Positions 36,382 to 53,150 of a stretch of DNA of 64,000 bases are shown in pieces. Below the pieces are notes generated by a model, which worked only from the letters and a program-made list of their open reading frames with translations, ran no database searches and was not told where the DNA came from. The stretch is from Hydrogenophaga pseudoflava NBRC 102511 (GTDB lineage: Bacteria > Pseudomonadota > Gammaproteobacteria > Burkholderiales > Burkholderiaceae_C): the NCBI RefSeq assembly GCF_001592285.1, contig NZ_BCWQ01000002.1:124001-188000 (forward strand), written 5' to 3'. The position numbers and the translations under genes are program-made. The number at the start of each line of letters is the position of its first letter. Position 1 is the stretch's first letter.

Positions 36382-38280
36382 TCAGCGCTCCAGATGCGCC
36401 AGCATCGCATCAATCTCGCCACCGATGCCCGCCAGCCCGGTGTACTCCGCTGGCGGACTCGACACCTTGTTTCGGTCGGCGTCCGTCTGTCGTGCCAGCG
36501 ACTCCTGGACGCTGGGCACGGTCTCTGGCAGCTCAATCGGTGCCACCGCGGGCGGTGGCGCTGACCGTGTCGGAGGCGTCACCACCGGCGGGTCGGTCGC
36601 CAGGGTCAGCAGGGGTACGTCGACCTTGGGCAGCAGCCGCTCCTTGAACGCCGTCTCCTTGAAGTAGCGGATCTTGTCCGACATCACCGGATGCGCCATG
36701 CCCTCCACCAGCAGGATCTGCTTGTCGTCACCCATGGCCTTGAGCTCCTGCGGCAGCATCAGCGCCCGGCGCTCCTCGCTTTCGCTGCGGGTGTAGCTGC
36801 TCTCGCGCGAGCGGCTGCGGCTCACGCTGTCCTTGCGCATGCCGGTGTAACCCAGCATCTCGCTGTATTCGTTGGCATCCTGCTGCTCGCGCGGCGCGAA
36901 GATGATGCGCAGCGCGTGGTTGGTCATGATGGTGCGCGCGTTCTCCTTGCCGTAGGTCGACTCCAGCTGCGCCATGCTCTGGATGATGGGCATCAGGCGC
37001 AGGTTGTAACCCGCCATGAAGCTCACCGCGCTGGCGATGATGTCGACGCGGCCGATGCTGGTGAACTCGTCCATCAGCAGCAGGCACTGGTGCTTGAGCT
37101 CGGGATTGGCCTGCGGCAGCTCTCGCGTGTTCTGGTTGATCAGCTGGCTGAAGAACAGGTTGAGGATCAGGCGGCTCTCGGCCAGCTTGTTGGGCTGGAT
37201 AGCGACGTAGATGCTCATCTTCTTCTTGCGCACGTCGCGCAGGTCGAAGTCGTTGCCGCTGGTGGCGGCGTCCACCACCGGGTTCAGCCAGGGGTTCAGC
37301 GGCTCCTTGAAGGTGCCCATGATGCTGGCGAAGGTCTCGTTGGCCTGCCCCAGTAGTGTGGCGAAGGCGGTGCGCGCACTGGGGCTCAGGTGCGGCCAGG
37401 CCGCCAGCTCCGCCAGGTAGGCCTTGAACTCCTGGCCGGGGCGCCCCGACGCCAGGCGGTAGAGCCCGCCCATGGTCGGTTCCTGGAAAGGCACCCCGTA
37501 CTGCTCGGCCAGGTAGGCCGCCTGTTCGTAGGCATACAGCGCGAACGCGACGAAGGCGTTCTGCGCCTGGTTGGCCCAGAACGGGTCCTTGTGCAGGTCC
37601 GACACCGGGTACAGCATGGCCGCGATGCTCTGCACGTCGCTGATGCGGAACGCCGGATCGCGCGAGACGTAGGACAGCGGGTTCCAGCGGTGCGTGCGCC
37701 GGTCCTCGGCGAACGGGTTGAACAGGTAGACGGACTGCCCGTAGCGAGCCCGAAAGCCGCTGGTGAGCTCGAAGTTCTCCTGCTTGATGTCCAGCACCAC
37801 CACCGAGCCCTGGTAGCTCAGCAGGTTGGGAATGACGATGCCCACCCCCTTGCCCGAGCGCGTGGGCGCGGCCAGCAAGGCGAACTGCTGCCCATTGAAG
37901 TAGACGAACTGCCCGTCTTTCTTGCCCACCACCAGCGCCGTGTCCTCGGCCCGCAGCATCTTGCGCGACCGCAGGTCGGCCATGGTGGCGAAGCGGGCCT
38001 CGCCGTAGAGGCTCGGCTTCCGGCGCAACAACACGGCGAGCGCCAGCGCTGCCAGCGCCAGCAAGGGCACACCAAATCCCACCAGGCCACTGCTCTTGAT
38101 GACCGGGCCATGCTTGGGCGCATCGGCGTAGGCGGCCAGGTAGCGCCAGTAGTCGAACGCGCCGATGCGCTCCAGCGGCAGGCCCAGGCGCCAGGCCATC
38201 AGCCACCCGCTGAAATAGGTTCCCGCCACCAGTGCCAACACCAGCAGCACCAGCACGCCCCAGCCTAGGAAACGCCTCAT
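36382..38280 (-). CDS. virD4: Type IV coupling protein VirD4
   Basis: ATPase of 632 residues that recruits substrates to the T4SS channel. Two N-terminal transmembrane segments (about 5-30 and 70-95) precede the soluble ATPase. Walker A is A-P-T-R-S-G-K-G (P139-G145), then V-V-L-D-I-K and Walker [12 protein letters not shown] near 385. The proline-rich C-terminal tail of about 100 residues is probably disordered. I chose ATG 38280, which overlaps the stop of the upstream lipoprotein (ATGA). It is the last gene of the T4SS cluster and ends 41 bases before glmM. A coupling protein without a relaxase fits protein-substrate export. Confidence 0.94.
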
Positions 38281-39248
38281 TGCCGGACCTTGGCACCTTT
38301 GACTTCGCCCAGGCGCGCCATCTGGTCCTTGTAGCGCCTCAGCTGGTCGCGGGCCCACTCGTACCGGCACAGCTCGACCGAGGCGGGCAGCGCCTTGACG
38401 GGCACGGCCTGCTCGCGGGACTGCGTCGCGCAACGCGCATCGCGGTACTCGCGCCACCGGCTGTGGTCCAGGTCCTGGTGGCGCGCATAGGACTGCGCAT
38501 AGCTCTTGCCGTGCTCGGCCTGCAGCGACTGCATACGGCCCGCCCGGTAGTCGCGCACGAGGGTCAGCAGGGCCTTGTCCTGCTCGATGCGCGCGCGGCG
38601 GCAGGCCACCAGCTCGGGCGCCCCGCTGTCGCACACCGCGTCCACCCGGTCGGGCGCTGCCCCGCGCCGCGCCGCCGCCGGTGTGCCGCGCACCCAGCGC
38701 CCGCTGGCAGCCACATAGCAGTGGCTCTCCACCTTCGGGCTCCCCGAGGCGCCGGCCACCTTCAACGACACGCAGTTCGGTGCCGAAGGCTGGATCTCTC
38801 CCGCGTTGGACACCAGATCAATCTGCGCATAACGCCCGGTTTTCGGATCGAACTGGTAGAGGCTGTCCACCGGCAGCTTGCCGTCCATGGCGTACAGGCG
38901 CGTGACCTTGAAGTCCAGCAGCCCGTCGCCATTGAAGTCCCTGAACTGCAGCCATCCGCTGGCGTCCAGCCGCTCGCGCGGCATCTCGAAGGCGTGCGGA
39001 AGCGCCTGCAGTTCCTTGCCATCCTGCGTCACCACGATGTAGCCCGACCCCACCTCGCCCTCGGCGGCATCGGCCTTGTCGTCGAACTCGAAGCTGAACG
39101 CAAGCTCCGGCGCCTCGTGCCCGACCTTCTGGGTCATGGTGTCGAGACCCTGGGCCTGTGGGCGCAGGAAATCCAGGGACAACGGGGCACACGCCACCAG
39201 GGACAGCAGCAGCGCAAGGCTGCTGGCGCTTCTCAAAACCTTCTTCAT
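38277..39248 (-). CDS. Lipoprotein with LprI/DUF1311-like C-terminal region
   Basis: Protein of 323 residues with a lipoprotein signal (L-L-S-L-V-A-C, Cys20). The N-terminal half contains F-R-D-F-N-G-D-G-L-L-D-F-K, an FG-GAP-like or calcium-loop-like stretch. The C-terminal part (about 205-315) resembles the DUF1311/LprI pattern: paired Cys, a charged helix, W-R-E-Y-R-D-A-R-C and E-L-C-R-Y-E-W-A-R-D. LprI proteins inhibit lysozyme. A periplasm-facing lysozyme inhibitor next to virD4 would fit an immunity protein against a T4SS-delivered peptidoglycan hydrolase, but that is inference. gtgagg precedes the ATG, and its stop overlaps virD4. Confidence 0.7.
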   Translation of the reverse strand: MKKVLRSASSLALLLSLVACAPLSLDFLRPQAQGLDTMTQKVGHEAPELAFSFEFDDKADAAEGEVGSGYIVVTQDGKELQALPHAFEMPRERLDASGWLQFRDFNGDGLLDFKVTRLYAMDGKLPVDSLYQFDPKTGRYAQIDLVSNAGEIQPSAPNCVSLKVAGASGSPKVESHCYVAASGRWVRGTPAAARRGAAPDRVDAVCDSGAPELVACRRARIEQDKALLTLVRDYRAGRMQSLQAEHGKSYAQSYARHQDLDHSRWREYRDARCATQSREQAVPVKALPASVELCRYEWARDQLRRYKDQMARLGEVKGAKVRQ

Positions 39249-39275
39249 GTCCTCACTCCCTTGTTTTCACAGACC

Positions 39276-39728
39276 TCAGTAGCCGCAGCGCGCAAACACC
39301 GCTGTGTCCACGGGTTCATCCAGTGCGTCGGCGCCCCGGCGGCGGGACCAGAGCAGCTCGTCCTGTCGCAGCTCGAAGACATAGGTCTCCAGCGTTTTGG
39401 GCTTGTCGTAGGGCGGCACATCGACCAGGGCCTGCATGCGCCAGGTGTTGACGCGGCGAGGCTGTACATCGGTCACGAAGTACATGGTGGTCTGGGTGTT
39501 CTCCGCCCACTGCTGCAGTTGGCGTTCGTCGATCACCAGCGCCCCCGGATCGGGCTCCACCGGTTTGCGCCCGAGGTAGGCGGCGCACTTGGCGACCCCC
39601 TCCTCGTTCTTCAGGAACCACAGCCCCCGCATGTCGACCGGGGTGATGCCCGGTGTCGGCGTGGCGGCCTGCGCCGCCATGGCACAAAGCGCGACAAAGG
39701 CCGCCGCCACAACCTGACGATGTTTCAT
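39276..39728 (-). CDS. Secreted hypothetical protein of the T4SS cluster
   Basis: Protein of 150 residues with a signal peptide (M-K-H-R-Q-V-V, A-A-Q-A-A). The mature part has two Cys (one in V-A-K-C-A-A-Y-L-G, one at the C-terminal A-R-C-G-Y), likely forming one disulfide, and W-F-L-K-N-E-E-G. I do not recognise a family. ggagga lies four bases before the ATG. It lies between virB11 and the LprI-like lipoprotein, 18 bases from virB11, so it is part of the same operon. Candidate roles are a T4SS accessory or an immunity protein. Confidence 0.7.
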   Translation of the reverse strand: MKHRQVVAAAFVALCAMAAQAATPTPGITPVDMRGLWFLKNEEGVAKCAAYLGRKPVEPDPGALVIDERQLQQWAENTQTTMYFVTDVQPRRVNTWRMQALVDVPPYDKPKTLETYVFELRQDELLWSRRRGADALDEPVDTAVFARCGY

Positions 39729-39745
39729 GTTGTCCTCCTTGAATG

Positions 39746-40795
39746 TCATGACTCCAGCGCGAGCTTGCGCTGGGGATCGAAGTCGATGCCAGTGATGTAG
39801 CGCTGGCCGGCATGGGCCTTGATGTGCACCACGATGTCGATGGTGAGCATCAGCAATCGCTTGATCTCGTCGAAGTCCAGGCCTGAGCCCTCAGGCGAGG
39901 CCTTGACCATCAGCGCCATCTGGTCCCAGGTCTGGCTCGTGCTGCCGGCATGGCAGCTGGTGATCGAACCCGGGTGGCCGGAGGCGCAGTTGCGGATGTA
40001 GTAGAACGATTCGTCGCCCCGGATTTCGGCCAGGATGATGCGGTCGGGCTTCATCCGCAGGCAGGCCTCCATGCAGCCCTTGGCCGTGACATTGGCCGTG
40101 CCCTGCCCGCCCCGCGAATAGATCAGGTGCACGCGGTTGGGCTGCTCGATGAACAGCTCCCGCGCGTCCTCGATCGTGATGAGCCGCTCGTCTTCCGGTA
40201 TGTGCGTCACCAGCGACTTCATGAAGGTCGTCTTGCCGCTGCCTGTGGCACCCGACACGACGATGTTCTTCTTGTAGAACACGGCCTTGCTGAAGAAGTC
40301 GTGGTAGTTGCGGGACCGCTTGAGCGCCAGCAGTTCTTCGTCCATCTCGCTGACGCTGTCGGTGCCCTCCAGAATCCGGGCAAAAAAGCCGTCCTCCTGG
40401 TACTGGTTGAGCGTCTTGGTGTAACGCGAGGGCAGGCGGATGGTGATCGAGACGTGATCCGCCGGCACCGCGGGCGGCAGCACGAACTGCGCGCGCTGCC
40501 CGGTGGGAAAGGTCAGCGACACCACCGGGTCCACCGCAGTGATGCGCTGCCCGGTCTTGCTCTCGTTGACCACCGTGGTGCAGAACTGGCGCGCACGGTC
40601 GAAGGTCAGCCCGGGCACATCGATGCGCTCCCAGCCCCTGACCGTCTCCAGAAACACCTCTCCTGGGCGGTTGATGCAGATCTCGGTGACGCGCGGATCG
40701 CCCAAGAACGGGGTGATGCCCAGGACGTGGTACTGGTACTCCAGAAACTCGGTGGAGATGTTCGCGATCTGTTCCGCGCCGCCACTCTCTGACAT
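39746..40795 (-). CDS. virB11: T4SS traffic ATPase VirB11
   Basis: Hexameric cytoplasmic ATPase of 349 residues. Walker A is G-A-T-G-S-G-K-T-T (G182-T189), the Asp box is E-D-A-R-E-L-F, Walker B is I-L-A-E-I-R-G-D-E near 260, and the His box C-H-A-G-S near 286. It switches VirB4/VirD4 between pilus assembly and substrate transport. I use ATG 40795; a GTG at 40810 is in frame upstream. Confidence 0.95.
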   Translation of the reverse strand: MSESGGAEQIANISTEFLEYQYHVLGITPFLGDPRVTEICINRPGEVFLETVRGWERIDVPGLTFDRARQFCTTVVNESKTGQRITAVDPVVSLTFPTGQRAQFVLPPAVPADHVSITIRLPSRYTKTLNQYQEDGFFARILEGTDSVSEMDEELLALKRSRNYHDFFSKAVFYKKNIVVSGATGSGKTTFMKSLVTHIPEDERLITIEDARELFIEQPNRVHLIYSRGGQGTANVTAKGCMEACLRMKPDRIILAEIRGDESFYYIRNCASGHPGSITSCHAGSTSQTWDQMALMVKASPEGSGLDFDEIKRLLMLTIDIVVHIKAHAGQRYITGIDFDPQRKLALES

Positions 40796-40813
40796 GTCAG
40801 ACACCACCACCGG

Positions 40814-41896
40814 TCAGCGCATCACGCTCGAGAAATCCACGTCCCGGGCGGTGAAGATGTTGATCACCGTGCCGTTCAGCACCGTCACCGTCGCCTTGCG
40901 GTTGGCTGAGCGGGCCAACATATCGGAGGCGGCCTTCTTGGCAGTGGCCGCAGTGGCCGACTCCCAGGGATCGATGGACACCACGCCCACACCGCCGGCC
41001 CCCGTCACCGTCGTGCTGCCGCGAATGTTGTGTTCGTTCGCGAACCTCTGAGCCCCGGCATCGATGCCATCGGCCAGCAGGCTGACCAGCATGGCTGCGC
41101 CAATGCGCTCACCCCAGTGACCGTCGTAGTGACCGGGCACCCCGGCCCCACCGAGCGCGTCCGTGCCGTTGCTGTCGATCCGCACATCCAGACCCGTGGT
41201 GGTGAGCACGCGGGTCCAGACGATGCCGATCCGGTCGTAGTTCTCGTCGGCGTACTTGTACTCGCCTGTGACCTTCGACCCCTTGTCGATCAGCAACCGG
41301 CGCCCGTTGACCGAGTAGATGGGCTCGGTGACGATGCACGAGGTCATGCCAGGCAGGGTCGACACGATCTTGGTTTCCAGCGAGCAGCGGATGTACGTTC
41401 CACGGGTCAGCGTGAAGTCGGCATTGGCCAGGGCCTCGACCGCACCGCGCTTGACCGACGAGTACTCGTCCTCGAACAACTGGTTCTTCTTGCCCTTGTC
41501 CTGGGTCGCGACCAGGTTGTTCTCGCTCGCCATGCGGCGCTGCATCAGATCGTCCTTGGGCGCCTGGGCCTCGGCCAGCTGGGGCATCTCCGTAGGCAGT
41601 GACGGCACATCCGCCTTGGCCACCACTTCGGCAGGCGGCGGCGGTGGCAGCAGGTTGAGCTTCGGCTTGTTCGGCACGGTGACCTCTTCATAGGTCACCT
41701 GCTTCTTCTTGTCGTCGTCGGCCGAGAACGCATTGCTCGCAACCCACAGGGTCATGCCAATGGTGGCCAGCGACACCAGAACGATGTACGCCACCGCCGT
41801 CTTGTTCACGCCGCGCGACAGGCCCGCCGACAGCTTGGGCATGTTGTCGGACAGCACCGGGCCCTGTCCGCCGCCTTGGGGAAATTGCATGCTCAT
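40814..41896 (-). CDS. virB10: T4SS core complex protein VirB10
   Basis: Protein of 360 residues that spans both membranes: a short cytoplasmic N-terminus, one transmembrane helix (about 34-55), a proline-rich stretch (L-L-P-P-P-P-P) and a C-terminal beta-barrel domain (about 150-355) with R-G-T-Y-I-R-C-S-L-E-T and L-I-D-K-G-S-K-V-T-G-E-Y. It forms the outer-membrane pore with VirB7 and VirB9. Its start overlaps the virB9 stop by four bases. Confidence 0.95.
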   Translation of the reverse strand: MSMQFPQGGGQGPVLSDNMPKLSAGLSRGVNKTAVAYIVLVSLATIGMTLWVASNAFSADDDKKKQVTYEEVTVPNKPKLNLLPPPPPAEVVAKADVPSLPTEMPQLAEAQAPKDDLMQRRMASENNLVATQDKGKKNQLFEDEYSSVKRGAVEALANADFTLTRGTYIRCSLETKIVSTLPGMTSCIVTEPIYSVNGRRLLIDKGSKVTGEYKYADENYDRIGIVWTRVLTTTGLDVRIDSNGTDALGGAGVPGHYDGHWGERIGAAMLVSLLADGIDAGAQRFANEHNIRGSTTVTGAGGVGVVSIDPWESATAATAKKAASDMLARSANRKATVTVLNGTVINIFTARDVDFSSVMR

Positions 41897-42645
41897 TGGT
41901 TCCTCCTGAGTCCCACCACGTCATTGCCCAGCCGCATCACCAGAAACGGATAGACGCCCAGCACCACCATCACGTTCTTCTCGCTCTTGGTGTTCACCAG
42001 AAATTCCTCGCCATTGCGTTCATTGCGCCCGAACACGGCGGGGAAGTTCGCCATCGGCGGCAGGTGGATGTAGGTGAACTGACCGTTGTCGTAGACCCGG
42101 GTGGGCACGATGGTCGACACGTCGCTGACCGCCGAGTAGTCGTAGTTCAGGTGGTAGTTGCTCTGCGAGTTCAGCGCAGCCGCCGACGGCGACAGCACCG
42201 CATTGGCGGCGGCGAGCGGGCTGGCCTTGTCCGGCTCCTCGTTGCCGTAGACAAAGCGAATCTTGTAGAACACGCCCGCGTTCTTGGCCTCTTCCAGTGT
42301 CTTCCACTTGGTGGCCGACACGCGCAAGTCCAGCAGGTACGAACGCATGTTGGTGCGGATGTACATGTTGGTGTCCACATCCACGTTCTTCGGCCGGATG
42401 TAGAAGATGTTGTCGCGCCGCACCAGCTCCCAGCCATCGCTGAACCCGGTGCCGAAGTCCTTCACCTGCTCCTGGGCGCTGATCTCGATCTGGGTGGCGA
42501 TGCCCAGCCCAGTGTTCACGCGCACCACCTGGTCGCGCTGATACGGCACTTCGCGCACCTCCTGTGCGCCGGCGCTGCCCGCCCAGAGGCTGGCCGTGAG
42601 CGCCAGAACCGCCATGGCGCTGAAGTTTCGCAATCGATGGGTCAT
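41893..42645 (-). CDS. virB9: T4SS core complex protein VirB9
   Basis: Periplasmic/outer-membrane protein of 250 residues with signal peptide (cleavage after A-G-A). The N-terminal domain has E-V-P-Y-Q-R-D-Q-V-V-R-V, and the C-terminal VirB7-binding domain contains N-Y-D-Y-S and P-x-R-V-Y-D-N-G-Q-F-T-Y-I near 195. It forms the outer ring with VirB7 and VirB10. Spacing to virB8 is about 80 bases, the largest gap in this half of the operon. Confidence 0.94.
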   Translation of the reverse strand: MTHRLRNFSAMAVLALTASLWAGSAGAQEVREVPYQRDQVVRVNTGLGIATQIEISAQEQVKDFGTGFSDGWELVRRDNIFYIRPKNVDVDTNMYIRTNMRSYLLDLRVSATKWKTLEEAKNAGVFYKIRFVYGNEEPDKASPLAAANAVLSPSAAALNSQSNYHLNYDYSAVSDVSTIVPTRVYDNGQFTYIHLPPMANFPAVFGRNERNGEEFLVNTKSEKNVMVVLGVYPFLVMRLGNDVVGLRRNQ

Positions 42646-42725: not shown

Positions 42726-43640
42726 CTACTGGCCCGGGGCTGGTGTCGCAGGAGCGCCGGGCAGTGCGGGCAGCGAAGGCTGGGCGGGCAGGGCACTTGC
42801 CGGCACCACCGCAGACGGCGCATCCTGCGCGTCGGCGCCGCGGTGCATCACACCCTCGTCCTCTGTCAGCAGCGGGATGCCCTTGTCCGGCTGACCCGCC
42901 TTGAACATCGGCGCGTTGAACTCGTCATCCACCCGGAACGAGGTCACCTGGAACCCCAGCGGATTGCGCAACCGCAGGTGGTCGCTCATCTTGAGGTTGG
43001 TCTTGTATTCATAGCTCATCGTGGCCACGTGGCTGCTGAGGTACTCGCTGCGCCCATTGGTCTTGTCGAACTTCCACTTCTCGAAGCGCACCGTGGCCCC
43101 GGTCGGCCGGGCACCGCGCTCCTCGTCCAGCCCGTTGAACACGATGCTGTTGACCTTCACCCGGATCGCGGCGTTGCGGCCCCACTTCTTCTCGGGGCTG
43201 TTGGCCGTGCCGTCGAACTGCTGCACGAAAAGGCCCTTGACCTGGTCGTTGGACATCGACGCGACGTACTCCCAGTCGTGCTCGTTGATGGTGTCGTAGT
43301 CGTAGCCCTCGCGTGCCTGCACGAAGCGGGCGACATGGCTGCGGTTGAGCGCCTCGCTGGCGTAGATGCCCGTGGCGGCGATGTTGTCGCGCAGCGGTGA
43401 CACGGTGCTGGTGCTGCGCTTGAGGTCGACCGTCACCAGGTACGGCACCTTTTCCTTGAGCGGCAGCATGTAGGCAATCGCCCCACCCAGCATCAAGGTC
43501 AGCACCATGGACGCACCCGCGACGATCCAGGCCCTGCGCTCGCTGCGCTTGACCATCGAGATCACGTTGGACTCGAAGTCCATCGACTTCTTGAGGATTT
43601 CCTGCGAGGCCTCGGACACCTCGCGCTTGAACAAAGCCAT
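42726..43640 (-). CDS. virB8: T4SS inner-membrane protein VirB8
   Basis: Bitopic protein of 304 residues: cytoplasmic N-terminus (1-36), one transmembrane helix (about 38-60) and a periplasmic NTF2-like domain (about 75-245) with D-Y-D-T-I-N-E-H-D-W and N-P-L-G-F-Q-V. A proline/alanine-rich tail of about 45 residues follows, longer than in the Agrobacterium protein. It helps to nucleate the inner-membrane complex with VirB6. virB7 ends seven bases upstream. Confidence 0.93.
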   Translation of the reverse strand: MALFKREVSEASQEILKKSMDFESNVISMVKRSERRAWIVAGASMVLTLMLGGAIAYMLPLKEKVPYLVTVDLKRSTSTVSPLRDNIAATGIYASEALNRSHVARFVQAREGYDYDTINEHDWEYVASMSNDQVKGLFVQQFDGTANSPEKKWGRNAAIRVKVNSIVFNGLDEERGARPTGATVRFEKWKFDKTNGRSEYLSSHVATMSYEYKTNLKMSDHLRLRNPLGFQVTSFRVDDEFNAPMFKAGQPDKGIPLLTEDEGVMHRGADAQDAPSAVVPASALPAQPSLPALPGAPATPAPGQ

Positions 43641-43647
43641 ACCGTCC

Positions 43648-44043
43648 TCAGGGCATCTTGGTGACCAGCATCGACCGGCTGGCCGACACCTGGATGCGCA
43701 GCTTCTGCGCCGCGTAGTTGCGCCTCACCGCGTTGAGGGCGCGCTGCAGGTTGTTGTCCTTGACCGACTCCAGGCCCGACACCAGGGTCAGGTCGCTGGG
43801 GTACTGCCAGTCCAGCGCACCCCCGTTCTCCTTGGCCCAGCGCTCCAGCATGTGGCGCAGCGTGGCATCGGTCGGCAGCATCTGGAACCGCGGCAGCTCG
43901 TTTTCTTCCTTGAGCGGAATCTCCTGCGGCTTGGCGGCCAGCGTGTTCACCGGCTTCCAGCTGTCGGAAATGTCGATGGGCTTGGGCGCTGCGCAGGCTT
44001 GCAGCAAGCCTGCCAGCAACAAGGCCCCCAGTACACGTGTCAT
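43648..44043 (-). CDS. virB7: VirB7-like lipoprotein with N0/TcpQ-like domain
   Basis: Lipoprotein of 131 residues; signal L-L-Q-A-C with modified Cys17. Canonical VirB7 is only about 55 residues. Here a C-terminal domain of about 80 residues follows (T-L-R-H-M-L-E-R-W-A-x-E, L-D-W-Q-Y-P-S-D-L-T-L), which resembles the N0/TcpQ-like domain described for VirB7 of Xanthomonas T4SS. Four in-frame ATGs exist (44088, 44073, 44058, 44043). I use the last because aaggga precedes it and it starts a compact lipoprotein signal. The domain would project from the outer ring into the periplasm around the core complex. Confidence 0.85.
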   Translation of the reverse strand: MTRVLGALLLAGLLQACAAPKPIDISDSWKPVNTLAAKPQEIPLKEENELPRFQMLPTDATLRHMLERWAKENGGALDWQYPSDLTLVSGLESVKDNNLQRALNAVRRNYAAQKLRIQVSASRSMLVTKMP

Positions 44044-45703: not shown

Positions 45704-45741
45704 GTGCAAACTCTGGAAGTGATTTCAATCAAAGCACCTCG

Positions 45742-46353: not shown

Positions 46354-46355
46354 AC

Positions 46356-46742
46356 TCACTCGCATTTATTGGGATCAAAATTCCGCTCAAGCTCACCACC
46401 CGGCACCTCATCCCAATCGACCCCATTCGAGACATACCCACCGGAACTTAATACTGCGAAGGTGGCCGTTAGGGTCTGATTGCCAGATCTCCAGCGCCGC
46501 AAGAAAGCATGTGGCACCTCATCTGGAGAGCGTCCAACCGCTCCATCAACATCCGCATATGTCATGCAATTCTGATTAATCCGGTCATACGCCGCCCGCA
46601 AGTCCACATCATCAGAACCATCCCCCCCACCACCGCCGCCACAAGCAGCCAGACTGGCAGACAGCACAGCAGCCAAAGCGAGACGAACCTTAACAAAGGA
46701 CCTCTTTGTCTGTTTCAAACCTTGGTCACATCGAACAAACAT
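46356..46742 (-). CDS. Small lipoprotein, copy B (paired with VirB5 copy B)
   Basis: Protein of 128 residues with lipoprotein signal (S-L-A-A-C) followed by a Gly run. The mature part shares D-L-R-A-A-x-D-R and M-T-Y-x-D-V-x-x-A-V-G with the lipoprotein at 47399-47761. The core resembles small SmpA/BamE-like domains, which would fit an outer-membrane accessory of the secretion channel. Function unknown. aaggag lies before ATG 46742. It ends three bases before virB5 copy B. Confidence 0.75.
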   Translation of the reverse strand: MFVRCDQGLKQTKRSFVKVRLALAAVLSASLAACGGGGGGDGSDDVDLRAAYDRINQNCMTYADVDGAVGRSPDEVPHAFLRRWRSGNQTLTATFAVLSSGGYVSNGVDWDEVPGGELERNFDPNKCE

Positions 46743-46788
46743 GAAACTCACTCCTTCAATAAAATGCTGCTGATTGAGAAAAAAATAT

Positions 46789-47376
46789 TCAAACCATTGC
46801 GCAGATTGCCCGCCCAGCGGGTCCAGTAATGGACGACGTGCCAATCACATTGCGCGCTTCTGCCATTTGCATCTCGTGGGCTTTTTCTCGCCGCTTGTAG
46901 CCGAAGTGCAGCGCCTGAAGCTTCATCGCGTCGTTCTGCATGCGCGTCTGCAGGCCGATCAGCTCGAACTGGAGGCGCTGCAGCTTCCCAGAGTCCTCGA
47001 CGGTTCTTCCGTCATCAATCACCCGTTTGATTTGTCCGTCCCTCGTCACGATGACGTTCACGAGGTCCACCGTTTCCTTGAGCGTGGTCAGGCGCAGATT
47101 GCGTAGGCCCATACAGGCGTTGTAGTGCTGCTGGTTGAGCTGGCGGTCGCCACAGTCAGCGGCCGTGCCAATGAACCGCTCTGGGTTCTGCGCCGCGACG
47201 GTTGCAAAGTCAATATCAAGATTGGACGTGGCCGAGAGATTGGCCATTTGGCCGGTGGCCCCCCCAACGTTGTTGATTCGACGGACGAGATCCCTCACCG
47301 CTTCGTCCAGCACCGCCCATTGCGCCTGCGCCGCTTGCGACAGCAGCATCGAGCTCAAAAACAAGAGTTTCTTCAT
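46789..47376 (-). CDS. virB5: VirB5-like protein, copy A
   Basis: Secreted protein of 195 residues with signal peptide (M-K-K-L-L-F, A-A-Q-A-Q-W-A-V). It has D-C-G-D-R-Q-L-N-Q-Q-H-Y-N-A-C-M-G-L-R-N and E-M-Q-M-A-E-A-R, both shared with copy B. The predicted helical structure and place in the operon before virB6 support VirB5. The C-terminal tail I-T-G-P-A-G-R-A-I-C-A-M-V differs from copy B. Base composition is near the island average, unlike copy B. Confidence 0.82.
   Translation of the reverse strand: MKKLLFLSSMLLSQAAQAQWAVLDEAVRDLVRRINNVGGATGQMANLSATSNLDIDFATVAAQNPERFIGTAADCGDRQLNQQHYNACMGLRNLRLTTLKETVDLVNVIVTRDGQIKRVIDDGRTVEDSGKLQRLQFELIGLQTRMQNDAMKLQALHFGYKRREKAHEMQMAEARNVIGTSSITGPAGRAICAMV
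46856..46899. repeat. Direct repeat within virB5 copy A
   Basis: Partner of the 44-base repeat at 45818-45861 (two mismatches). The distance between the copies, 1,038 bases, equals the length of one lipoprotein+virB5 cassette. Confidence 0.8.
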
Positions 47377-47398: not shown

Positions 47399-47761
47399 TC
47401 ATTGATAACGGCGATGTATTTCTGGCTCCCCTGCCCGCCCTGCCAAAACTGCGACCGCAATGCGCCGTTCGCTCGCATTGGCAGGTGTTTGAAAGGTGAC
47501 CATCAAAAGTCGACCGTCGTGCGACCAGTTGTCGGGGCCTTCATTCGGCTGCCAACCCACTGCAGCCACCACCTCGTCGTATGTCATGCCCGCCTGCAAG
47601 CGGTCCAACGCCGCCCGCAGGTCTTTGGAGTCTTCAGACCTGTCATCACCGCCACCACCACAGGCAGACAAGCCCAACGCCAGGACACTCGCCAGGGTCA
47701 GTCTGATCGCGGCCCTGCGGGCCATCCCATGCATCGCTGCGTTACCTTCATTGCTTTTCAT
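47399..47761 (-). CDS. Small lipoprotein, copy A (paired with VirB5 copy A)
   Basis: Protein of 120 residues; lipobox G-L-S-A-C followed by four Gly. The mature part has D-L-R-A-A-L-D-R-L and G-M-T-Y-D-E-V-V-A-A-V-G-W-Q-P, an SmpA/BamE-like helix pattern, then a beta-type segment ending R-R-Y-Q. It is paralogous to copy B. The start at 47761 begins a long N-terminal region (about 45 residues) before the lipobox; the ATGs encoding M10 or M13 are also possible starts. Confidence 0.72.
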   Translation of the reverse strand: MKSNEGNAAMHGMARRAAIRLTLASVLALGLSACGGGGDDRSEDSKDLRAALDRLQAGMTYDEVVAAVGWQPNEGPDNWSHDGRLLMVTFQTPANASERRIAVAVLAGRAGEPEIHRRYQ

Positions 47762-47810: not shown

Positions 47811-48368
47811 TCAGAAAAGGCGCGACTTGTTGCCCAAGCCGTACCACTTGCCGCCCGAGGCCTCACAGTTCTTCTTGCTCTTGCGCCACTCGAACAAGGT
47901 CTGCGGCGTGTAGTGGTAGTGGTTGGAGGTGGACTTTTCGCTGTCGGCGGCACCTCCGCTCTTGGCGCCGATGCAGGTGCCCAGCGCCTTGGGTGGGCAC
48001 TTCGGCACGAGGGTCGAGTCGATCTTCATCGGCGTCATCTGCACGGTGCAGGCCTTGTGCAGGGCCTCCACGTCGTCGCTGCCGGTGGTCGCACTCTCCC
48101 AGCAGCTGAGCAAGGGCAGGCCGGGCCGGGTGATGTCCATGTTGCCTTTTTGCAGGCAGGAGACCACCACGCCGACCTGCCCGGGCTCGGGCATTTCCGT
48201 GCCTTCGGGCAGCTTGTCGAGGATCTGGGTGTCGGGAATTTCAGGCTGCTCACCGGGCTTCGGTGGGCTTGGTGGCTTGGGCAGATTGACGGCGTGTGCG
48301 GCGGTGGCCAGCATCAGGGCGGCAGCCAGCGTGCCAAGGGCCCGCATGGCCCGTGTGGATGTGCTCAT
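47811..48368 (-). CDS. Cys-rich secreted protein of the T4SS cluster (185 aa)
   Basis: Protein of 185 residues with signal peptide (A-T-A-A-H-A-V) and then a proline-rich segment (P-K-P-P-S-P-P-K-P-G). The mature part has six Cys (71, 89, 107, 124, 132, 168), which could form three disulfides, and N-H-Y-H-Y-T-P near 150. I do not recognise a family. aggaggaa lies just before ATG 48368. It lies between virB4 and the VirB5 cassette, a slot that in X-type T4SS clusters can carry accessory or immunity genes. Confidence 0.7.
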   Translation of the reverse strand: MSTSTRAMRALGTLAAALMLATAAHAVNLPKPPSPPKPGEQPEIPDTQILDKLPEGTEMPEPGQVGVVVSCLQKGNMDITRPGLPLLSCWESATTGSDDVEALHKACTVQMTPMKIDSTLVPKCPPKALGTCIGAKSGGAADSEKSTSNHYHYTPQTLFEWRKSKKNCEASGGKWYGLGNKSRLF

Positions 48369-48408
48369 TGGTTTTCCTCCTATCTGTTGTTCTTGGTGCA
48401 AGCCGCCG

Positions 48409-48837
48409 TCACTCTTCCATCAGGTGCTGGCACTCCTCCAGCCCATCCGGTGCGCCGGCCTTGCCCTTGTAGTCAAAGGGCATCTTGCCCGGGCTCTTCC
48501 AGGTCCCCGGGCGGCGACCGTGAGGGCAGACCTGCTCGTACTTGCTGGTCCACTTGGGGTTGAAGCAGTACTGGTTGACGATCTTCCAGGTGCCGGCGAT
48601 GGGGTTCACCCCCACCCAGCAATGCGGCGGGTAGCCAAACGCACAGAAGGAAAACACGTCCTGCCCCGCCGGCAGGTCGTTGTCAAAGAAAGCGCCCCCC
48701 GTGGAGGTGCCTTCGGGGGCCAGGCCTCCGCAGTTGGACTGCCCCGCAGTCGCCGAAGCGGCCAGCGGGGCACCCGCCAGTACGAGTGCTGTCAGTAAGT
48801 GCATGGCGGTGGTTGTCGGTGTTCTGATTTGCTTCAT
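48409..48837 (-). CDS. Cys-rich secreted protein of the T4SS cluster (142 aa)
   Basis: Protein of 142 residues with signal peptide (L-A-A-S-A-T-A). Six Cys in the mature part (36, 65, 73, 91, 104, 136) again suggest three disulfides. Motifs such as F-C-A-F-G-Y-P-P-H-C-W-V-G-V-N-P recall small extracellular inhibitor or adhesin folds, but no family is recognised. It follows virB4 after 28 bases on the same strand and precedes the other six-Cys protein by 40 bases, so the two are probably a functional pair. Confidence 0.7.
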   Translation of the reverse strand: MKQIRTPTTTAMHLLTALVLAGAPLAASATAGQSNCGGLAPEGTSTGGAFFDNDLPAGQDVFSFCAFGYPPHCWVGVNPIAGTWKIVNQYCFNPKWTSKYEQVCPHGRRPGTWKSPGKMPFDYKGKAGAPDGLEECQHLMEE

Positions 48838-48865: not shown

Positions 48866-51361
48866 CTACCTCAGCAACGTCTCTTCGCTGCTCTCCTCCA
48901 GATCGGCTGTTGGCGCATGCCTGAGAAACTCATTGCTGTTGGCCATGAGCGCCTTGCGCTGGGTGCGCAACCCTTTGCGACGCAGGTGGAATTCGGGCAG
49001 CCATGTGTCTGGCAGGTGCGGCGTGGGGTGCTCCGCGAGCAGAGCCGTCAAGACCTCCACGTTGTCCGATGAACCCGACAGCACGGCGAGTTCGTCGTCC
49101 ATGCCATTGAGGTTGAGCTGGCACAGCACGGCGTTGTGGCCCTGCTTGACGAGGAAGCACCGGCTGCGCTCGTCCAGGCCCACCACCAGTTCGAACTCGG
49201 CCCGGGTGAGCTTGAGCCCCTCAAGGTAGTCCTTGGGGTCGGCGTTGGGGTTGGGCAGAAGGATCAGCGTCGCGGTCTGCTCTATGAGTGCGGCCGATAT
49301 GTCGCTGTTGAGCGCGTCCTGAGGACTCTGGGTGGCGAAGATGCCCAGGCCGTTCTGTTTCCGGATGGTCTTCTGCTTGTTCTTGGCGAAGTCCTTCAGA
49401 CCGCCTTTGCCCTCAAGCACCTTCCAGAACTCGTCCATCACATAGATGAACGGGCGCCCGTCAATGAGGCTTTCCATCCGGTGCAGTAGGTACTGGATGA
49501 TGGGCTCGCGGGTCTTGGAGTCCTCAATGACTTCGGTGTAGTCGAAGCCAATGATGTTGGAGCCTGAGAAGTCGATGTTGTCCTTGGGGTTGTCGAACAC
49601 CCAGGCAAACGGGCCGCCCTTGCACCAGACCGAGATGCACTCGAAGAGGCTGTTCTCGCCCATGTTGGGCAGGCTCTTCTGCAGGTTGGTCATAGTGCGC
49701 AGGTGCACCGGCGTGTCCAGGATGGCACGCACTGCACGTATCAGATCCTCCTGCTCGGTGGCGGCGTACTTCTCCTTGCCGCACAGCGTCTGCAGCAACT
49801 CCACGAGGAACTGCTCGTTCTCCGGCGTGTTGTCGCACTGGAGGGGGTTGAAGCCGGTCGGACGCCCCTTTTCCAGGGTGAAGTAGCGACCGCCGCAGGC
49901 GCGGATGAATATCTCGGCGCCGCGGTCTTTGTCAAAAAAGAAAATCATCGGCTCCGGATCGATCTTCTGCACCTGCGCCAGCAGGAAGTTGATCAGCGCC
50001 GTCTTGCCGGTACCCGACTTCCCGATCACCATTGTGTTGGCAATGGCCTTCTCGCCCAGCGAGTACTCATGCGGCTTGGTGGCGTGGAAGTTGAAGTGGT
50101 AGGCCTGATTGTTCAGCGTCTGAAGGATGCTGACCGACGGCCCCCAAGGGTTGAAGTTGGGCTTTCCGGTAGCGAAGTTGTGCAACGGACTCAGGCCCAG
50201 GAAGTTCAGTGAACTGAGATTGGCAATGCGCGGGCGGAAGCGCCAGTTGCAAGGCAACTGCGCATAGAAAGCCGCGGGCACAGCCACATCCTCCTTCACG
50301 GTCACGAAGCTGGCACCTGACAGCTGTGCGCGGGCCTGTGCGATGTGGCTGTACAGCTCGTCCTGGCTGGCCGCAAAGATGGCCATGTTGAAGTGGTATT
50401 GGCCGAGCACGAAATTGCCCGAGGCCAGTTGGTCCATGGCGAAGTCCAGCTCCACGATCTGACTCACCGCCTTGTCTTCGGACGAGAGCATGGCTCCCTT
50501 CGTCCGCTCCAAAGCCTTCATGGAGTCGTACCGACTCATGGGGGTGAAGGAGTGGGTAACGATGTACTCGAACTCGAGGTACTTCAGACCATTCAGAATG
50601 CCCGGCCAGGAACTGTCGGCGTATTCCTTGATGTTGAGGATGGCTCCGAAATAGTTGTCGCCATTGGCGGTGCGAACAGCGAAATCACCGCTCCCCGTCG
50701 AGAACAGGTGCTTGCTCGTCGGCAGGTAGTTGTAGATGGGTGCTGGCAGAACCGGCGCGGGTTCATCCACATGGTTGATGAGGTAGCCGAAGAACTCGAG
50801 GTTCTCGGAGAACACCTGCTTGTGCGTGCTCTCGTAAAGCCCCAGGCGGTACGGCGAGTAGTCCTGGAGGAGAGCTTCGACGTTGCCCACCAGCTCGTAG
50901 ATCTTCTCGAGGTAGGCCTTCTCCTCCTTGCGCAGGACCTCGATGTCGCGCGAGAGCGCCGCGAACTTCTTCCCACTGACCACGGGCCGGTACACCATGG
51001 TCAGGTACAGCTCGTTCTGCATCAACCGTTTGCTGGAGAGGCGTTCGATGTACTTGTCGTGCAGCTCTTGGCTGAACCTGTGGGGAAAGCGCGCCTCGGC
51101 CTTGATCGGCCTGCGGCGCCGAATGTCGTGGGCCCAGAAGGCCACGTTCTCGAAATCAGGCGCCCGCAGGCTTTGCAGCAGGTTGTTGAACGCCTTGTGC
51201 CGGTGCTCCAGCTCCCAGTCCTCACGCCCAACGAACGGAAAGCCGCAGAGCAGCCAGGTGACCATGTAGTCACCCTCGCGCGACTTCACCACATGGGCAT
51301 CCACATGGGTGCTGAAAGGGATGAAGTTGCTGTAGTCAGCGTCGGGAGAAAAGAGCGACAT
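48866..51361 (-). CDS. virB4: T4SS ATPase VirB4
   Basis: The largest T4SS ATPase, 831 residues. The N-terminal domain opens with N-F-I-P-F-S-T-H-V-D-A-H-V-V and F-W-A-H-D-I-R-R-R. The C-terminal ATPase domain has Walker A G-K-S-G-T-G-K-T (G447-T454), Walker B F-I-Y-V-M-D-E-F-W near 630 and the A-T-Q-S-P-Q-D-A-L motif near 670. It powers pilus biogenesis and substrate transport and matches the CagE/VirB4 family along its whole length. I use ATG 51361; a TTG at 51406 would add 15 residues and sits just after the virB3 stop. Confidence 0.94.
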   Translation of the reverse strand: MSLFSPDADYSNFIPFSTHVDAHVVKSREGDYMVTWLLCGFPFVGREDWELEHRHKAFNNLLQSLRAPDFENVAFWAHDIRRRRPIKAEARFPHRFSQELHDKYIERLSSKRLMQNELYLTMVYRPVVSGKKFAALSRDIEVLRKEEKAYLEKIYELVGNVEALLQDYSPYRLGLYESTHKQVFSENLEFFGYLINHVDEPAPVLPAPIYNYLPTSKHLFSTGSGDFAVRTANGDNYFGAILNIKEYADSSWPGILNGLKYLEFEYIVTHSFTPMSRYDSMKALERTKGAMLSSEDKAVSQIVELDFAMDQLASGNFVLGQYHFNMAIFAASQDELYSHIAQARAQLSGASFVTVKEDVAVPAAFYAQLPCNWRFRPRIANLSSLNFLGLSPLHNFATGKPNFNPWGPSVSILQTLNNQAYHFNFHATKPHEYSLGEKAIANTMVIGKSGTGKTALINFLLAQVQKIDPEPMIFFFDKDRGAEIFIRACGGRYFTLEKGRPTGFNPLQCDNTPENEQFLVELLQTLCGKEKYAATEQEDLIRAVRAILDTPVHLRTMTNLQKSLPNMGENSLFECISVWCKGGPFAWVFDNPKDNIDFSGSNIIGFDYTEVIEDSKTREPIIQYLLHRMESLIDGRPFIYVMDEFWKVLEGKGGLKDFAKNKQKTIRKQNGLGIFATQSPQDALNSDISAALIEQTATLILLPNPNADPKDYLEGLKLTRAEFELVVGLDERSRCFLVKQGHNAVLCQLNLNGMDDELAVLSGSSDNVEVLTALLAEHPTPHLPDTWLPEFHLRRKGLRTQRKALMANSNEFLRHAPTADLEESSEETLLR

Positions 51362-51412
51362 GTGCGAAAGCAGTTTGTTACCCGGAACGACCAGAAATGG
51401 CGACAACCAGAT

Positions 51413-51730
51413 TCACTGGTAAGGAGTCATCAGCTTCCGACGCTCCACCTTGCCAGCCGGCCCGAACGCCCAAGCCCCTCCGTATTGACCAACATTGCGA
51501 GGCAAAAACCGGAACACCAGATGCAATCCAACCAAGCGAAATATCATCTCGTCCCGCTTGGCCATCATTCGCATGACAAATATCGTCAACGGAATTAATA
51601 GCAAGATATAGAGAGAGATGTACATCGCCAGCAGCAGGGGGAGCCCCGCTCCGACTAGAAACGGGACATACGGAACCCCCAAAATCATGGGGGGGCGGGT
51701 GCAGCCCCGGAACAAAACATCCTTGTGCAT
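51413..51730 (-). CDS. virB3: T4SS inner-membrane protein VirB3
   Basis: Small protein of 105 residues. The N-terminus L-F-R-G-C-T-R-P-P-M-I-L-G-V-P and the following two hydrophobic segments (about 20-55) are typical of VirB3. It associates with VirB4, into which it is fused in some systems. No strong ribosome site is visible. The sequence from here to virB2 is richer in A and T than the rest of the island. Confidence 0.9.
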   Translation of the reverse strand: MHKDVLFRGCTRPPMILGVPYVPFLVGAGLPLLLAMYISLYILLLIPLTIFVMRMMAKRDEMIFRLVGLHLVFRFLPRNVGQYGGAWAFGPAGKVERRKLMTPYQ

Positions 51731-51751: not shown

Positions 51752-52129
51752 CTATTCGCTTTGAGCGCCACAGGTTGTAGATGCACCTTCATTAGGCACC
51801 CAGTCTCCGACAAACCAACCCGCAATAGTGGCAGCCCCACCAATCAACAACCCACCAATCAGGATAGGTGCTACATCTGAGAGGCGCTTGTGCGCGAATG
51901 CGATCTGATACCCTGCAAAAACCACGGCAATTGTGACAATTGAGACGGAAGCCACTCTGAGAATGGTCTCGAATTGCGCAAAGAATCCAGTCACCTTGTC
52001 ACAGGCATCCGCAAAGGTCTGCGCAGACACATCAGGAATTATCGTCACCAGGGCTATTCCAAGCAATACAGTGATCATCAACTGACGCTCAAAACCCGAC
52101 TTCAATTTAAATTCTGAAAAACTCTTCAT
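51752..52129 (-). CDS. virB2: T4SS pilin VirB2
   Basis: Major pilin precursor of 125 residues. A long signal peptide (up to D-V-S-A-Q near 37) is followed by two hydrophobic helices (about 57-76 and 87-108) joined by a short basic turn (A-F-A-H-K-R-L), the standard VirB2 hairpin. Two Cys (C43 and C121) could form a disulfide, unusual for a pilin. A perfect aaggagga lies four bases before ATG 52129, consistent with high expression. Confidence 0.9.
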   Translation of the reverse strand: MKSFSEFKLKSGFERQLMITVLLGIALVTIIPDVSAQTFADACDKVTGFFAQFETILRVASVSIVTIAVVFAGYQIAFAHKRLSDVAPILIGGLLIGGAATIAGWFVGDWVPNEGASTTCGAQSE

Positions 52130-52139
52130 ACTTCCTCCT

Positions 52140-53150
52140 TTAAAAAACAAATGATTGATCAGCCGACTCGCCCGGCGCTTTTCCAACTCCTCCACTGGGG
52201 GGAGACAGGGAAGAAGACGCCGCCGGCCTCGCGACCGATCCCGGCGCCTCACCATGAACGATGGGGCCACCCTTGCGAGGCAACGTGACGCGAGACACTC
52301 CACCTCGCAAAGGGGCAGCAAGGGCTGTATCCCGCGACGATTCCGGTGTCAGAAAGGGATCAGGAAGGGGCAAGGCATTGCCAGGCACGGCTGGCGGTGG
52401 TTGCCGCGCCGGCAACTGTTTGGTCTGGTAAGGCTCGCCGTTAACCCCTACCAGCTGGGTCGGTATCTGCCCGATGCCAACCTTGTTGCGGTCAAGGTGT
52501 TCGCTCGACGCTTGAGACACCACCGCTCCCGGCCCCGGAACGGGAATGGCCGGCCGGCTTTCTGCCGTGCTCATTCCGGAAGCGCCACCTGCTTCAGCAC
52601 GAAGAGCAGCCCCAGACTGAGCAACTCCCAAGCCCTCTTGGTTTGTGACCGGAACGGCGTCTGGTGGCAGCGTCTTGCGGAGCCGGGGTCGGTTGGAAAT
52701 GATGCGAATGGGACCAGCGGTGGCAGACTCGCTGCTCGCTTTGCGCATGGACGCAAACACCTTCTGCACATACCCGTGCTGAAAACCCGTGGCAAAGTTG
52801 CCCGAGTAATAACAACTGAACGCCTTGCCCCAGTCCTGGGCACGGTCGTAACACTCTCTGAGGATGCGGGAGCCCGCTTGCAGGTTGGGGCAGACCTCGA
52901 ACGCCTGTTCGTAGGTCTTGAGGCCGTATTTCGCTAGGTTGTAGCGATTGACCTGCGAGATGCCGACGGAAAAGTTGTAGCCCTCGTCCTTGAGCTGGCG
53001 CACGGTGGCCAGGGCTTCTTCAAGGTTCTTGGGCTGGCGCGCCAAATATCCGTCCACCACCCCAATGGCGAACGGATTGCGCGATGACTCCACGTGCACG
53101 ACGTGTTGCATCACCTCCCAGGGTACCGCGAGATCCGGACAATCCAGCAT
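52140..53150 (-). CDS. virB1: T4SS lytic transglycosylase VirB1
   Basis: Protein of 336 residues. The SLT-type domain covers about 1-140 with the catalytic Glu in V-H-V-E-S-S-R-N-P-F-A-I-G-V and the conserved S-V-G-I-S-Q-V-N-R-Y-N-L and F-S-C-Y-Y-S-G-N-F. The remaining 190 residues are proline/alanine-rich and low in complexity. It opens peptidoglycan for the T4SS. No signal peptide is seen from ATG 53150; an in-frame stop lies 17 codons upstream, so a longer N-terminus in this frame is impossible from ATG. It is the first gene of the T4SS operon. Confidence 0.9.
   Translation of the reverse strand: MLDCPDLAVPWEVMQHVVHVESSRNPFAIGVVDGYLARQPKNLEEALATVRQLKDEGYNFSVGISQVNRYNLAKYGLKTYEQAFEVCPNLQAGSRILRECYDRAQDWGKAFSCYYSGNFATGFQHGYVQKVFASMRKASSESATAGPIRIISNRPRLRKTLPPDAVPVTNQEGLGVAQSGAALRAEAGGASGMSTAESRPAIPVPGPGAVVSQASSEHLDRNKVGIGQIPTQLVGVNGEPYQTKQLPARQPPPAVPGNALPLPDPFLTPESSRDTALAAPLRGGVSRVTLPRKGGPIVHGEAPGSVARPAASSSLSPPSGGVGKAPGESADQSFVF

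What the first reader, a model, noticed from the sequence alone, without database searches (positions are those of the whole stretch)
36382..53150. Complete VirB/VirD4 T4SS inserted between folP and glmM, with no relaxase
folP and glmM are adjacent in most proteobacteria (rlmE-ftsH-folP-glmM). Here a 16.8 kb one-strand block of 19 genes separates them, both flanking genes are complete, and no integrase, transposase, tRNA or direct repeat marks the ends. All VirB1-11 and VirD4 genes look intact and there are at least six small exported accessory proteins, but no relaxase or DNA-processing gene. With a long VirB7 this points to a protein-exporting, possibly antibacterial X-type system rather than conjugation. 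No effector is in the window.
Basis: partly seen in the sequence, partly recalled or inferred. Interest (0 to 1): 0.72.

Follow-up and report, generated by a model that had tools for sequence, protein, structure and literature searches.

The report
Bacteria-killing secretion system with swappable tips
A soil and water bacterium carries a complete toxin-injecting machine of a known bacteria-killing type, and across its genus the tip and inner stalk of the machine appear to be swapped as a cassette and are sometimes encoded elsewhere in the genome beside the toxins, a layout we did not find described for this kind of machine.

Summary
Nineteen one-strand genes between glmM and folP encode VirB1-11 and VirD4 plus six small exported proteins. 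It is an X-type (Xanthomonadales-like) antibacterial T4SS of Hydrogenophaga: N0-type VirB7, all 12 subunits, VirB4 inside the X-T4SS group (100/100 branch), and an XVIPCD effector on another contig. A strict relaxase link is not seen. Hydrogenophaga X-T4SSs are in print, so the machine is a new member. The folP-glmM site holds it in 15 of 18 X-T4SS genomes of the genus and is empty in 22 of the 36 genus genomes examined.

New is the layout around VirB5-VirB6. With a small lipoprotein gene before every assessable VirB5 (28 of 28) they form a cassette that varies sharply (VirB6 mean 42% identity, VirB4 90%), differs between sister strains, is partly duplicated here, and recurs on unlinked islands with effectors; the window's genome has one on contig C13. 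Two main loci lack virB5 and virB6 altogether. A second effector C-terminal domain (CT2) occurs in 18 of 18 X-T4SS genomes, in a few cases on toxin bodies related to XVIPCD ones. That the lipoproteins exclude kin attack is inferred, not shown.

The parts
36382..38289 (-). virD4 coupling ATPase
   Evidence: PF02534 E 5.3e-116
38277..39248 (-). XAC2610-like lipoprotein, apparently an orphan immunity protein (X-Tfi) here
   Evidence: NCBIfam NF047539 XAC2610_fam E 1.2e-5, 25.7 bits, below its cut-off of 35. In G025 a CT2 effector frame lies directly before its homologue. No solved-structure match
39276..39749 (-). small exported protein of unknown function
   Evidence: signal peptide seen in the translation; homologue seen in 10 of 14 loci, some of which end before it
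39746..40810 (-). virB11
   Evidence: PF00437 E 4.1e-26
40814..41896 (-). virB10
   Evidence: PF03743 E 2e-42
41893..42645 (-). virB9
   Evidence: PF03524 E 2.9e-46
42726..43640 (-). virB8; 64 residues after the Pfam domain, 54.7% A+Q+G+P
   Evidence: PF04335 E 6.2e-42; composition
43648..44088 (-). virB7, 146 aa, lipoprotein with N0-like domain
   Evidence: PF10671 28.5 bits, cut-off 27
44111..45709 (-). virB6
   Evidence: PF04610 E 4.3e-18
45742..46365 (-). virB5a, next to virB6
   Evidence: position, signal peptide, cysteine pair invariant in 13 aligned relatives; no convincing Pfam match
46356..46751 (-). lipoprotein A, directly before virB5a
   Evidence: lipobox and glycine run; genus profile E 8e-25 (the profile includes it)
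46789..47376 (-). virB5b, second copy
47399..47761 (-). lipoprotein B, directly before virB5b
   Evidence: genus profile E 2.3e-26 (the profile includes it)
47811..48401 (-). exported protein with several cysteines, seen in 8 of 14 loci
48409..48837 (-). exported protein with several cysteines, seen in 14 of 14 loci; at least two allele classes by eye
48866..51406 (-). virB4
   Evidence: PF03135 E 4e-45; tree
51413..51730 (-). virB3
   Evidence: PF05101 E 5.6e-21
51752..52321 (-). virB2 pilin (the true start lies inside this open frame)
   Evidence: PF04956 E 9.2e-13
52140..53150 (-). virB1 lytic transglycosylase
   Evidence: PF01464 E 1.2e-8

Best explanation
This is a chromosomal, contact-dependent, antibacterial X-type VirB/VirD4 system. 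VirD4 selects toxins by a C-terminal domain (XVIPCD, and probably the CT2 domain) and the VirB machine injects them into other bacteria; cognate immunity proteins protect the producer. VirB5 (pilus tip) and VirB6 (inner stalk that carries the tip) form, with a lipoprotein gene before VirB5, an exchangeable cassette. The rest of the machine is kept while this cassette is replaced, duplicated in part, or carried on separate islands with toxins and supplied in trans. Shown from sequence: X-type membership, effector genes in the genome, the constant lipoprotein-VirB5 pairing, the replaced cassettes and the islands. Inferred: killing activity, CT2 as an export signal, use of island VirB5/VirB6 in trans. 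Weaker inference: the lipoprotein blocks attack by sisters that use the same tip, like the entry-exclusion lipoproteins of plasmids.
For: X-type: all 12 subunits and N0-type VirB7; VirB4 with 11 Hydrogenophaga and 7 Stenotrophomonas rows on one side of a 100/100 branch, 7 conjugative or plasmid rows on the other; VirB4 60-68% identical to the Stenotrophomonas loci, top-listed plasmid record 42.2%, all 5000 plasmid records kept under 60%; XVIPCD effector PF20410 30.1 bits, cut-off 24.9, with a 251-aa exported-protein gene overlapping its start; the genus XVIPCD profile matches chain 7r6s at E 1.1e-11, which is the Stenotrophomonas T4SS effector TfcB. Co-occurrence in 67 genus genomes, 18 with X-type VirB4: VirB5 18/18 and 0/49 others; XVIPCD 18/18 and 3/49; CT2 18/18 and 3/49; lipoprotein 17/18 and 4/49; none of the four in the 14 genomes that have a conjugative-type VirB4 (430-670 bits) and no X-type one. 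Leaving out the genomes whose sequences built each model (one search list): VirB5 7/7, XVIPCD 12/12 (one, G002, a weak match with a stop), CT2 11/11, lipoprotein 6/7. Cassette: mean pairwise identity VirB4 89.8, VirB11 89.3, VirB6 42.2, the lowest of 18 genes; three sister pairs with VirB4 97-100% but VirB6 32-54, VirB5 40-61, lipoprotein 26-37. Islands; main loci of G035 and G065 lack virB5 and virB6. A lipoprotein lies directly before 28 of 30 VirB5 genes or remnants, the other two being at contig ends. Lipoprotein and VirB5 distances: r 0.573 over 18 pairs, 0 of 20000 permutations as high, best of 48 within-genome swaps, partial r 0.56 given VirB4. Some toxin bodies occur with CT2 and with XVIPCD: 47% over 344 and 368 aa, E 5e-84 and 2e-80.
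Against: No experiment. Other genes vary too: XAC2610-like lipoprotein 50.7, two exported proteins 58-62, virB1-B3 64-71, virD4 69.7 mean identity, so VirB5-VirB6 is the deepest but not the only trough. Nearest neighbours of lipoprotein and VirB5 agree in only 7 of 18 pairs. The H. flava copy of lipoprotein A is frameshifted beside a VirB5 that is still open. Many lipoprotein matches have no VirB5 beside them, and a two-domain copy in this genome lies beside an aconitase-like gene (by eye), so the family may have other roles. Fold searches of the lipoprotein and of VirB5 gave no significant match, so VirB5 rests on position, features and co-occurrence. Relaxase PF03432 is somewhat more frequent with X-T4SS (p 0.014). 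No effector lies in this main locus.
Confidence: 0.8

Rival explanations
1. An X-T4SS as above, but the tandem and island VirB5/VirB6 copies are only variant tips for binding different prey or surfaces, as proposed for the Bartonella Trw system, and the lipoprotein is a periplasmic chaperone or anchor for VirB5 rather than a shield.
For: Lipoprotein directly before 28 of 30 VirB5, the other two at contig ends; Bartonella trwL and trwJ-trwH (virB5-virB7) tandem duplicates (passages of PMC2610397); Sgro et al. describe tandem virB5 in two Lysobacter.
Against: Intact lipoproteins remain beside decayed or shortened VirB5 in four places and without any VirB5 in others, which a chaperone would not explain; effectors sit inside islands.
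Confidence: 0.4
2. The lipoproteins are ordinary immunity proteins (X-Tfi) for effectors encoded near them.
For: Effector genes lie directly before the lipoprotein in several islands and main loci.
Against: The island effectors in G000 and G035 have another exported-protein gene directly before them, the usual place of an X-Tfi, and the window's two lipoprotein-VirB5 pairs, like those of several other main loci, have no recognised effector beside them.
Confidence: 0.15
3. A conjugative or mobilising T4SS that has lost or shares its relaxase.
For: A PF03432 relaxase exists elsewhere in the genome, C19:5643-5975; the family is more frequent in X-T4SS genomes, 14 of 18 against 21 of 49, p 0.014.
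Against: Four X-T4SS genomes lack it (G002, G025, G035, G068); VirB4 outside the conjugative rows; co-occurrence with XVIPCD effectors.
Confidence: 0.04
4. A T4SS for eukaryotic hosts.
For: None found.
Against: The effectors recognised carry XVIPCD, Tle1-like phospholipase or weak lipase matches, the kind described for antibacterial systems.
Confidence: 0.03

Closest known systems
X-T4SS of Hydrogenophaga (Sgro et al. 2019, PMC6536674: abstract, passages, sections 9, 11, 13 and 14 read)
   Same: Same genus; N0-type VirB7, all 12 subunits, XVIPCD effectors; an operon split into virB1-6 and virB7-11 blocks is described there for H. crassostreae.
   Different: What was read does not mention folP-glmM, a lipoprotein before VirB5, VirB5-VirB6 replacement, unlinked islands or CT2. 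Figures and supplements were not available.
Bartonella Trw T4SS (PMC2610397, passages)
   Same: Duplicated, variant virB5-virB6 homologues.
   Different: There in tandem with virB7, no VirD4 and no known substrate; here with lipoprotein partners, effectors, and on unlinked islands.
RP4 TrbJ/TrbK entry exclusion (PMC11045733 and PMC8923210, passages)
   Same: A VirB5 homologue and a small lipoprotein encoded together; expressing either protected recipients from RP4 T4SS antagonism.
   Different: There the lipoprotein gene lies between the virB5 and virB6 homologues, here before virB5; no sequence relation to TrbK was tested.
Orphan VgrG islands of type VI secretion (recalled, from no call)
   Same: Tip protein and effector encoded together away from the main cluster.
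   Different: Unrelated proteins and machine; analogy only.

Membership tests
X-T4SS (criteria of Sgro et al. 2019) | Chromosomal location | tested here: met
   Between folP and glmM on a 411,881-base contig
X-T4SS (criteria of Sgro et al. 2019) | VirB7 of about 130-185 aa with C-terminal N0 domain | tested here: met
   146 aa; PF10671 28.5 bits, cut-off 27; the motif before it reads QEIPL where [T/S]EIPL is described
X-T4SS (criteria of Sgro et al. 2019) | All twelve class A subunits | tested here: met
   11 by Pfam; VirB5 by position, signal peptide and cysteine pair, fold search inconclusive
X-T4SS (criteria of Sgro et al. 2019) | Effector with C-terminal XVIPCD in the genome | tested here: met
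   PF20410 over its cut-off at C8:111875-112141
X-T4SS (criteria of Sgro et al. 2019) | VirB8 AQGP-rich extension | tested here: met
   64 aa after the Pfam domain (my cut), 54.7%; published values 32-73%
X-T4SS (criteria of Sgro et al. 2019) | Contact-dependent killing that needs the machine | not testable with these tools
   needs an experiment
Entry-exclusion lipoproteins (TrbK/Eex) | Small lipoprotein encoded next to the VirB5 homologue | tested here: met
   28 of 30 VirB5 genes or remnants, two at contig ends; but before VirB5, not after it
Entry-exclusion lipoproteins (TrbK/Eex) | Sequence relation to TrbK/Eex | tested here: inconclusive
   No such family among the Pfam or NCBIfam matches of the two window lipoproteins; no direct comparison made
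Entry-exclusion lipoproteins (TrbK/Eex) | Protects recipients from the cognate machine | not testable with these tools
   needs an experiment
XVIPCD, for the CT2 domain | Recognisable homology to XVIPCD | tested here: inconclusive
   hhalign E 0.23; with more sequences E 0.0057 local and 9e-4 global over the full length, probability only 6-9%, against 0.11-0.92 (local) for three controls; no PF20410 match among the 4 CT2 proteins; no solved-structure match
XVIPCD, for the CT2 domain | Tied to X-T4SS in the genus | tested here: met
   18 of 18 against 3 of 49; 11 of 11 without the genomes that built the model. Absent from 8 Stenotrophomonas genomes with an X-T4SS, so not general to X-T4SS

The most novel reading that the evidence does not exclude
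An antibacterial T4SS with interchangeable, effector-linked tip-and-stalk modules (lipoprotein-VirB5-VirB6) kept in the main locus and on unlinked islands and fitted to one shared machine in trans, where the lipoprotein marks kin by blocking entry of its own tip type: a T4SS counterpart of the orphan VgrG islands of type VI secretion, with an added second class of effector address (CT2).
Probability: 0.4. Interest if true: 0.85.

Novelty: new variant of a known kind. Interest (0 to 1): 0.62.

Why it matters
If right, the tip of a killing T4SS is a replaceable part, so prey choice and self-recognition can evolve apart from the rest of the machine. It gives a test of the open question of what VirB5 does at the target cell, links antibacterial T4SSs with plasmid entry exclusion, and gives a genus-specific profile for candidate effectors that the XVIPCD model misses: in this genome XVIPCD finds one and CT2 three more.

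Tried and rejected
Insertion ends: no repeat longer than chance, so no mobile-element boundary is claimed. Relaxase link: not strict, though enriched; only PF03432 was searched, no other relaxase family and no oriT. Fold of the lipoprotein: OsmE and BamE lead the list but at E 0.19 and above, so not claimed. Fold of VirB5: only generic helical hits. Solved-structure searches with CT2, VirB5 and the XAC2610-like protein: nothing useful. Nearest-neighbour agreement of lipoprotein and VirB5, 7 of 18, is against strict co-divergence. The cassette is not always VirB5-VirB6 alone: between H. aromaticivorans and HGW-9 an exported protein before it differs too (44%); between the window and H. flava virB1-B3 (61-77%) and virB8-B10 (82-88%) also dip; between MAG_7 and A37 virB1 is 60%. 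A37's VirB6 is cut by a contig end. The site is not universal: in three of 18 X-T4SS genomes virB1 is not beside folP. The other virB genes of G007 were not found; its main site keeps virB1-4 only. The VirB4 tree carries long branches among the conjugative rows, which the tool warns about. One search used 14 of the 18 X-T4SS loci; G002, G007, G065 and G086 were left out. One search covers the loci fetched (57 matches), not every hit. Not-in-print statements rest (listings; open-licence papers only) and on the papers named.
Full report
What is there. Between glmM and folP (window 36382-53150) lie 19 genes on the minus strand. Pfam recognises VirB1-B4, B6-B11 and VirD4. Two VirB5-like genes lie between virB4 and virB6, each directly preceded by a gene for a small lipoprotein that starts with a cysteine and a glycine run. 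Both VirB5 copies have a signal peptide, and a cysteine pair is invariant in 13 aligned sequences of the family, as Sgro et al. describe for X-T4SS VirB5 (PMC6536674 section 9). Four more small exported proteins complete the set; one resembles the immunity protein XAC2610 below that family's cut-off.

Which kind of machine. It meets each X-T4SS criterion of Sgro et al. 2019 (Table 1 note) that sequence can test: chromosomal site, N0-type VirB7, twelve subunits, and an XVIPCD effector in the genome. The effector (contig C8, 454 aa) passes PF20410 and has a lipase match below cut-off; a 251-aa exported-protein gene overlaps its start. The genus XVIPCD profile matches solved chain 7r6s at E 1.1e-11, the Stenotrophomonas T4SS effector TfcB (PMC11253643, passages). 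In the VirB4 tree the window groups with 11 Hydrogenophaga and 7 Stenotrophomonas rows on one side of a 100/100 branch, seven conjugative or plasmid rows on the other; some of the latter are long branches. The searches found one VirB4 in the window's genome.

The site. In the 36 genus genomes have folP and glmM within 120 bases, 10 are occupied or partly occupied (G000, G002, G004, G005, G007, G015, G021, G025, G027, G035) and 4 could not be judged. Of 24 genomes of other families in the order 23 have them within 140 bases and one could not be judged. In G015 a virB1 remnant beside folP was the only recognised X-T4SS gene in 29 kb; G004 shows T4SS genes at the glmM side and none after folP. 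Of the 18 genus genomes with an X-type VirB4, 15 have the cluster beside folP or glmM and three have other genes before virB1, in two of them fatty-acid-oxidation-like genes by eye. So this is a standing address within the genus, not a fresh insertion in this strain, and not the state of the order.

A variable tip cassette. Over up to 14 of the 18 loci the mean pairwise identity is 89.8 for VirB4, 89.3 for VirB11, 78-83 for VirB8-B10, and 42.2 for VirB6, the lowest of 18 genes; the XAC2610-like lipoprotein (50.7), two exported proteins (58-62) and virB1-B3 (64-71) vary as well. Close pairs show replacement: MAG_7 and A37 share VirB4 at 100% but VirB6 at 37, VirB5 at 40, lipoprotein at 31 (virB1 60); HGW-9 and H. 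aromaticivorans are 89-100% in the genes listed except VirB6 32, VirB5 45, lipoprotein 26 and one exported protein 44; E9 and HGW-16 have VirB4 at 99 but VirB6 54, VirB5 61, lipoprotein 37; the window and H. flava have glmM at 99 but VirB6 at 38. Copy number in the main locus changes too: two lipoprotein-VirB5 pairs in the window, one in H. pseudoflava, three in H. flava (one with the frameshifted lipoprotein).

The lipoprotein. It lies directly before 28 of 30 VirB5 genes or remnants, with gaps of 62-348 bases between the profile matches; the other two VirB5 are at contig ends. Over 18 pairs its distances follow those of VirB5 (r 0.573, 0 of 20000 permutations as high; best of 48 within-genome partner swaps; partial r 0.56 given VirB4), but nearest neighbours agree in only 7 of 18. 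It occurs in 17 of 18 X-VirB4 genomes and 4 of 49 others; the four are G004, which has an X-type virD4, G015, which has a virB1 remnant, and two fragmentary assemblies. In G086, the X-VirB4 genome without it, VirB5 is cut by a contig end. Intact lipoproteins persist beside decayed or shortened VirB5 in four places and without any VirB5 in others, as orphan immunity genes would; the reverse case, a frameshifted lipoprotein beside an open VirB5, exists in H. flava. In IncP and IncN plasmids the exclusion gene lies between the virB5 and virB6 homologues (PMC8923210, passages), and in RP4 TrbJ or TrbK protects recipients against T4SS antagonism (PMC11045733, passages). That makes exclusion my best guess for its role, not a result.

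Islands. On contig C13 the window's own genome has an exported-protein gene, a Tle1-like effector, lipoprotein, VirB5 and VirB6 in a row. H. pseudoflava appears to have the same, split over two contig ends. G025 and G007 have one island each, G035 and G065 two each; in G035, G065 and G007 an XVIPCD gene stands opposite one island. The main loci of G035 (H. taeniospiralis) and G065 have the other virB genes and virD4 but no virB5 or virB6, so if those machines work, the islands must supply tip and stalk.

A second effector class. [quoted passage not shown] Seven of the 18 gave sequences to the model; in the other 11 it was found in all. XVIPCD gives 18 of 18 and 3 of 49, one of the 18 (G002) being a weak match with a stop. 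Three CT2 proteins are in the window's genome (C13, C16, C20); two match the Tle1-like phospholipase family. Of 18 CT2 and 17 XVIPCD bodies compared, two CT2 bodies (L104, L107) match two XVIPCD bodies strongly (38-47% over 323-368 aa) and four further pairs weakly, so the two C-termini can serve related toxins. CT2 may be a far-diverged XVIPCD: E 0.0057 local and 9e-4 global over the full length, at a probability of only 6-9%. It was not found in 8 Stenotrophomonas genomes with an X-T4SS.

Relation to what is known. X-T4SSs in Hydrogenophaga are in print (PMC6536674). Tandem virB5 copies are described there for two Lysobacter, and tandem virB5-virB7 homologues for Bartonella Trw (PMC2610397, passages). 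What I read of the papers, and the listings, showed no description of the lipoprotein partner, the cassette replacement, unlinked effector islands with VirB5-VirB6, or CT2; subscription papers, figures and supplements were not covered.

Verdict. The machine is a new member of a known kind; the modular tip with lipoprotein partner and effector islands is a new variant of it. The architecture is shown from sequence; the function of its parts is inferred.

Noticed in passing
G000 C19:5643-5975 (L114): A PF03432 relaxase of about 400 aa in a stretch that looks mobile by eye (a ParA-like gene nearby); the searches found no VirB4 in this genome other than the X-type one.
   Followed up: partly
window 47811-48837: Two exported proteins with several cysteines after virB4; the one nearer virB4 was seen in 14 of 14 loci with at least two allele classes by eye, the other in 8 of 14.
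   Followed up: partly
G000 C1:147042-147551 (L064): A two-domain relative of the lipoprotein beside an aconitase-like gene (by eye), with two-domain matches also in G004, G027 and G064; role unknown.
   Followed up: no
L033 (H. flava), second lipoprotein: Lipoprotein A is frameshifted within its glycine run while the VirB5 after it stays open; intact copies exist in relatives. Could be phase variation or a sequencing error.
   Followed up: no
L053-L054 (G015): 29 kb between glmM and folP with a virB1 remnant as the only recognised X-T4SS gene and a distant virB11-like gene (34%): a possible replacement by another element.
   Followed up: no
L059 (G004) and L055 (G005): XVIPCD proteins of about 820-830 aa between virD4 and glmM in relatives; in the window that gap is only some 40 bases.
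   Followed up: partly
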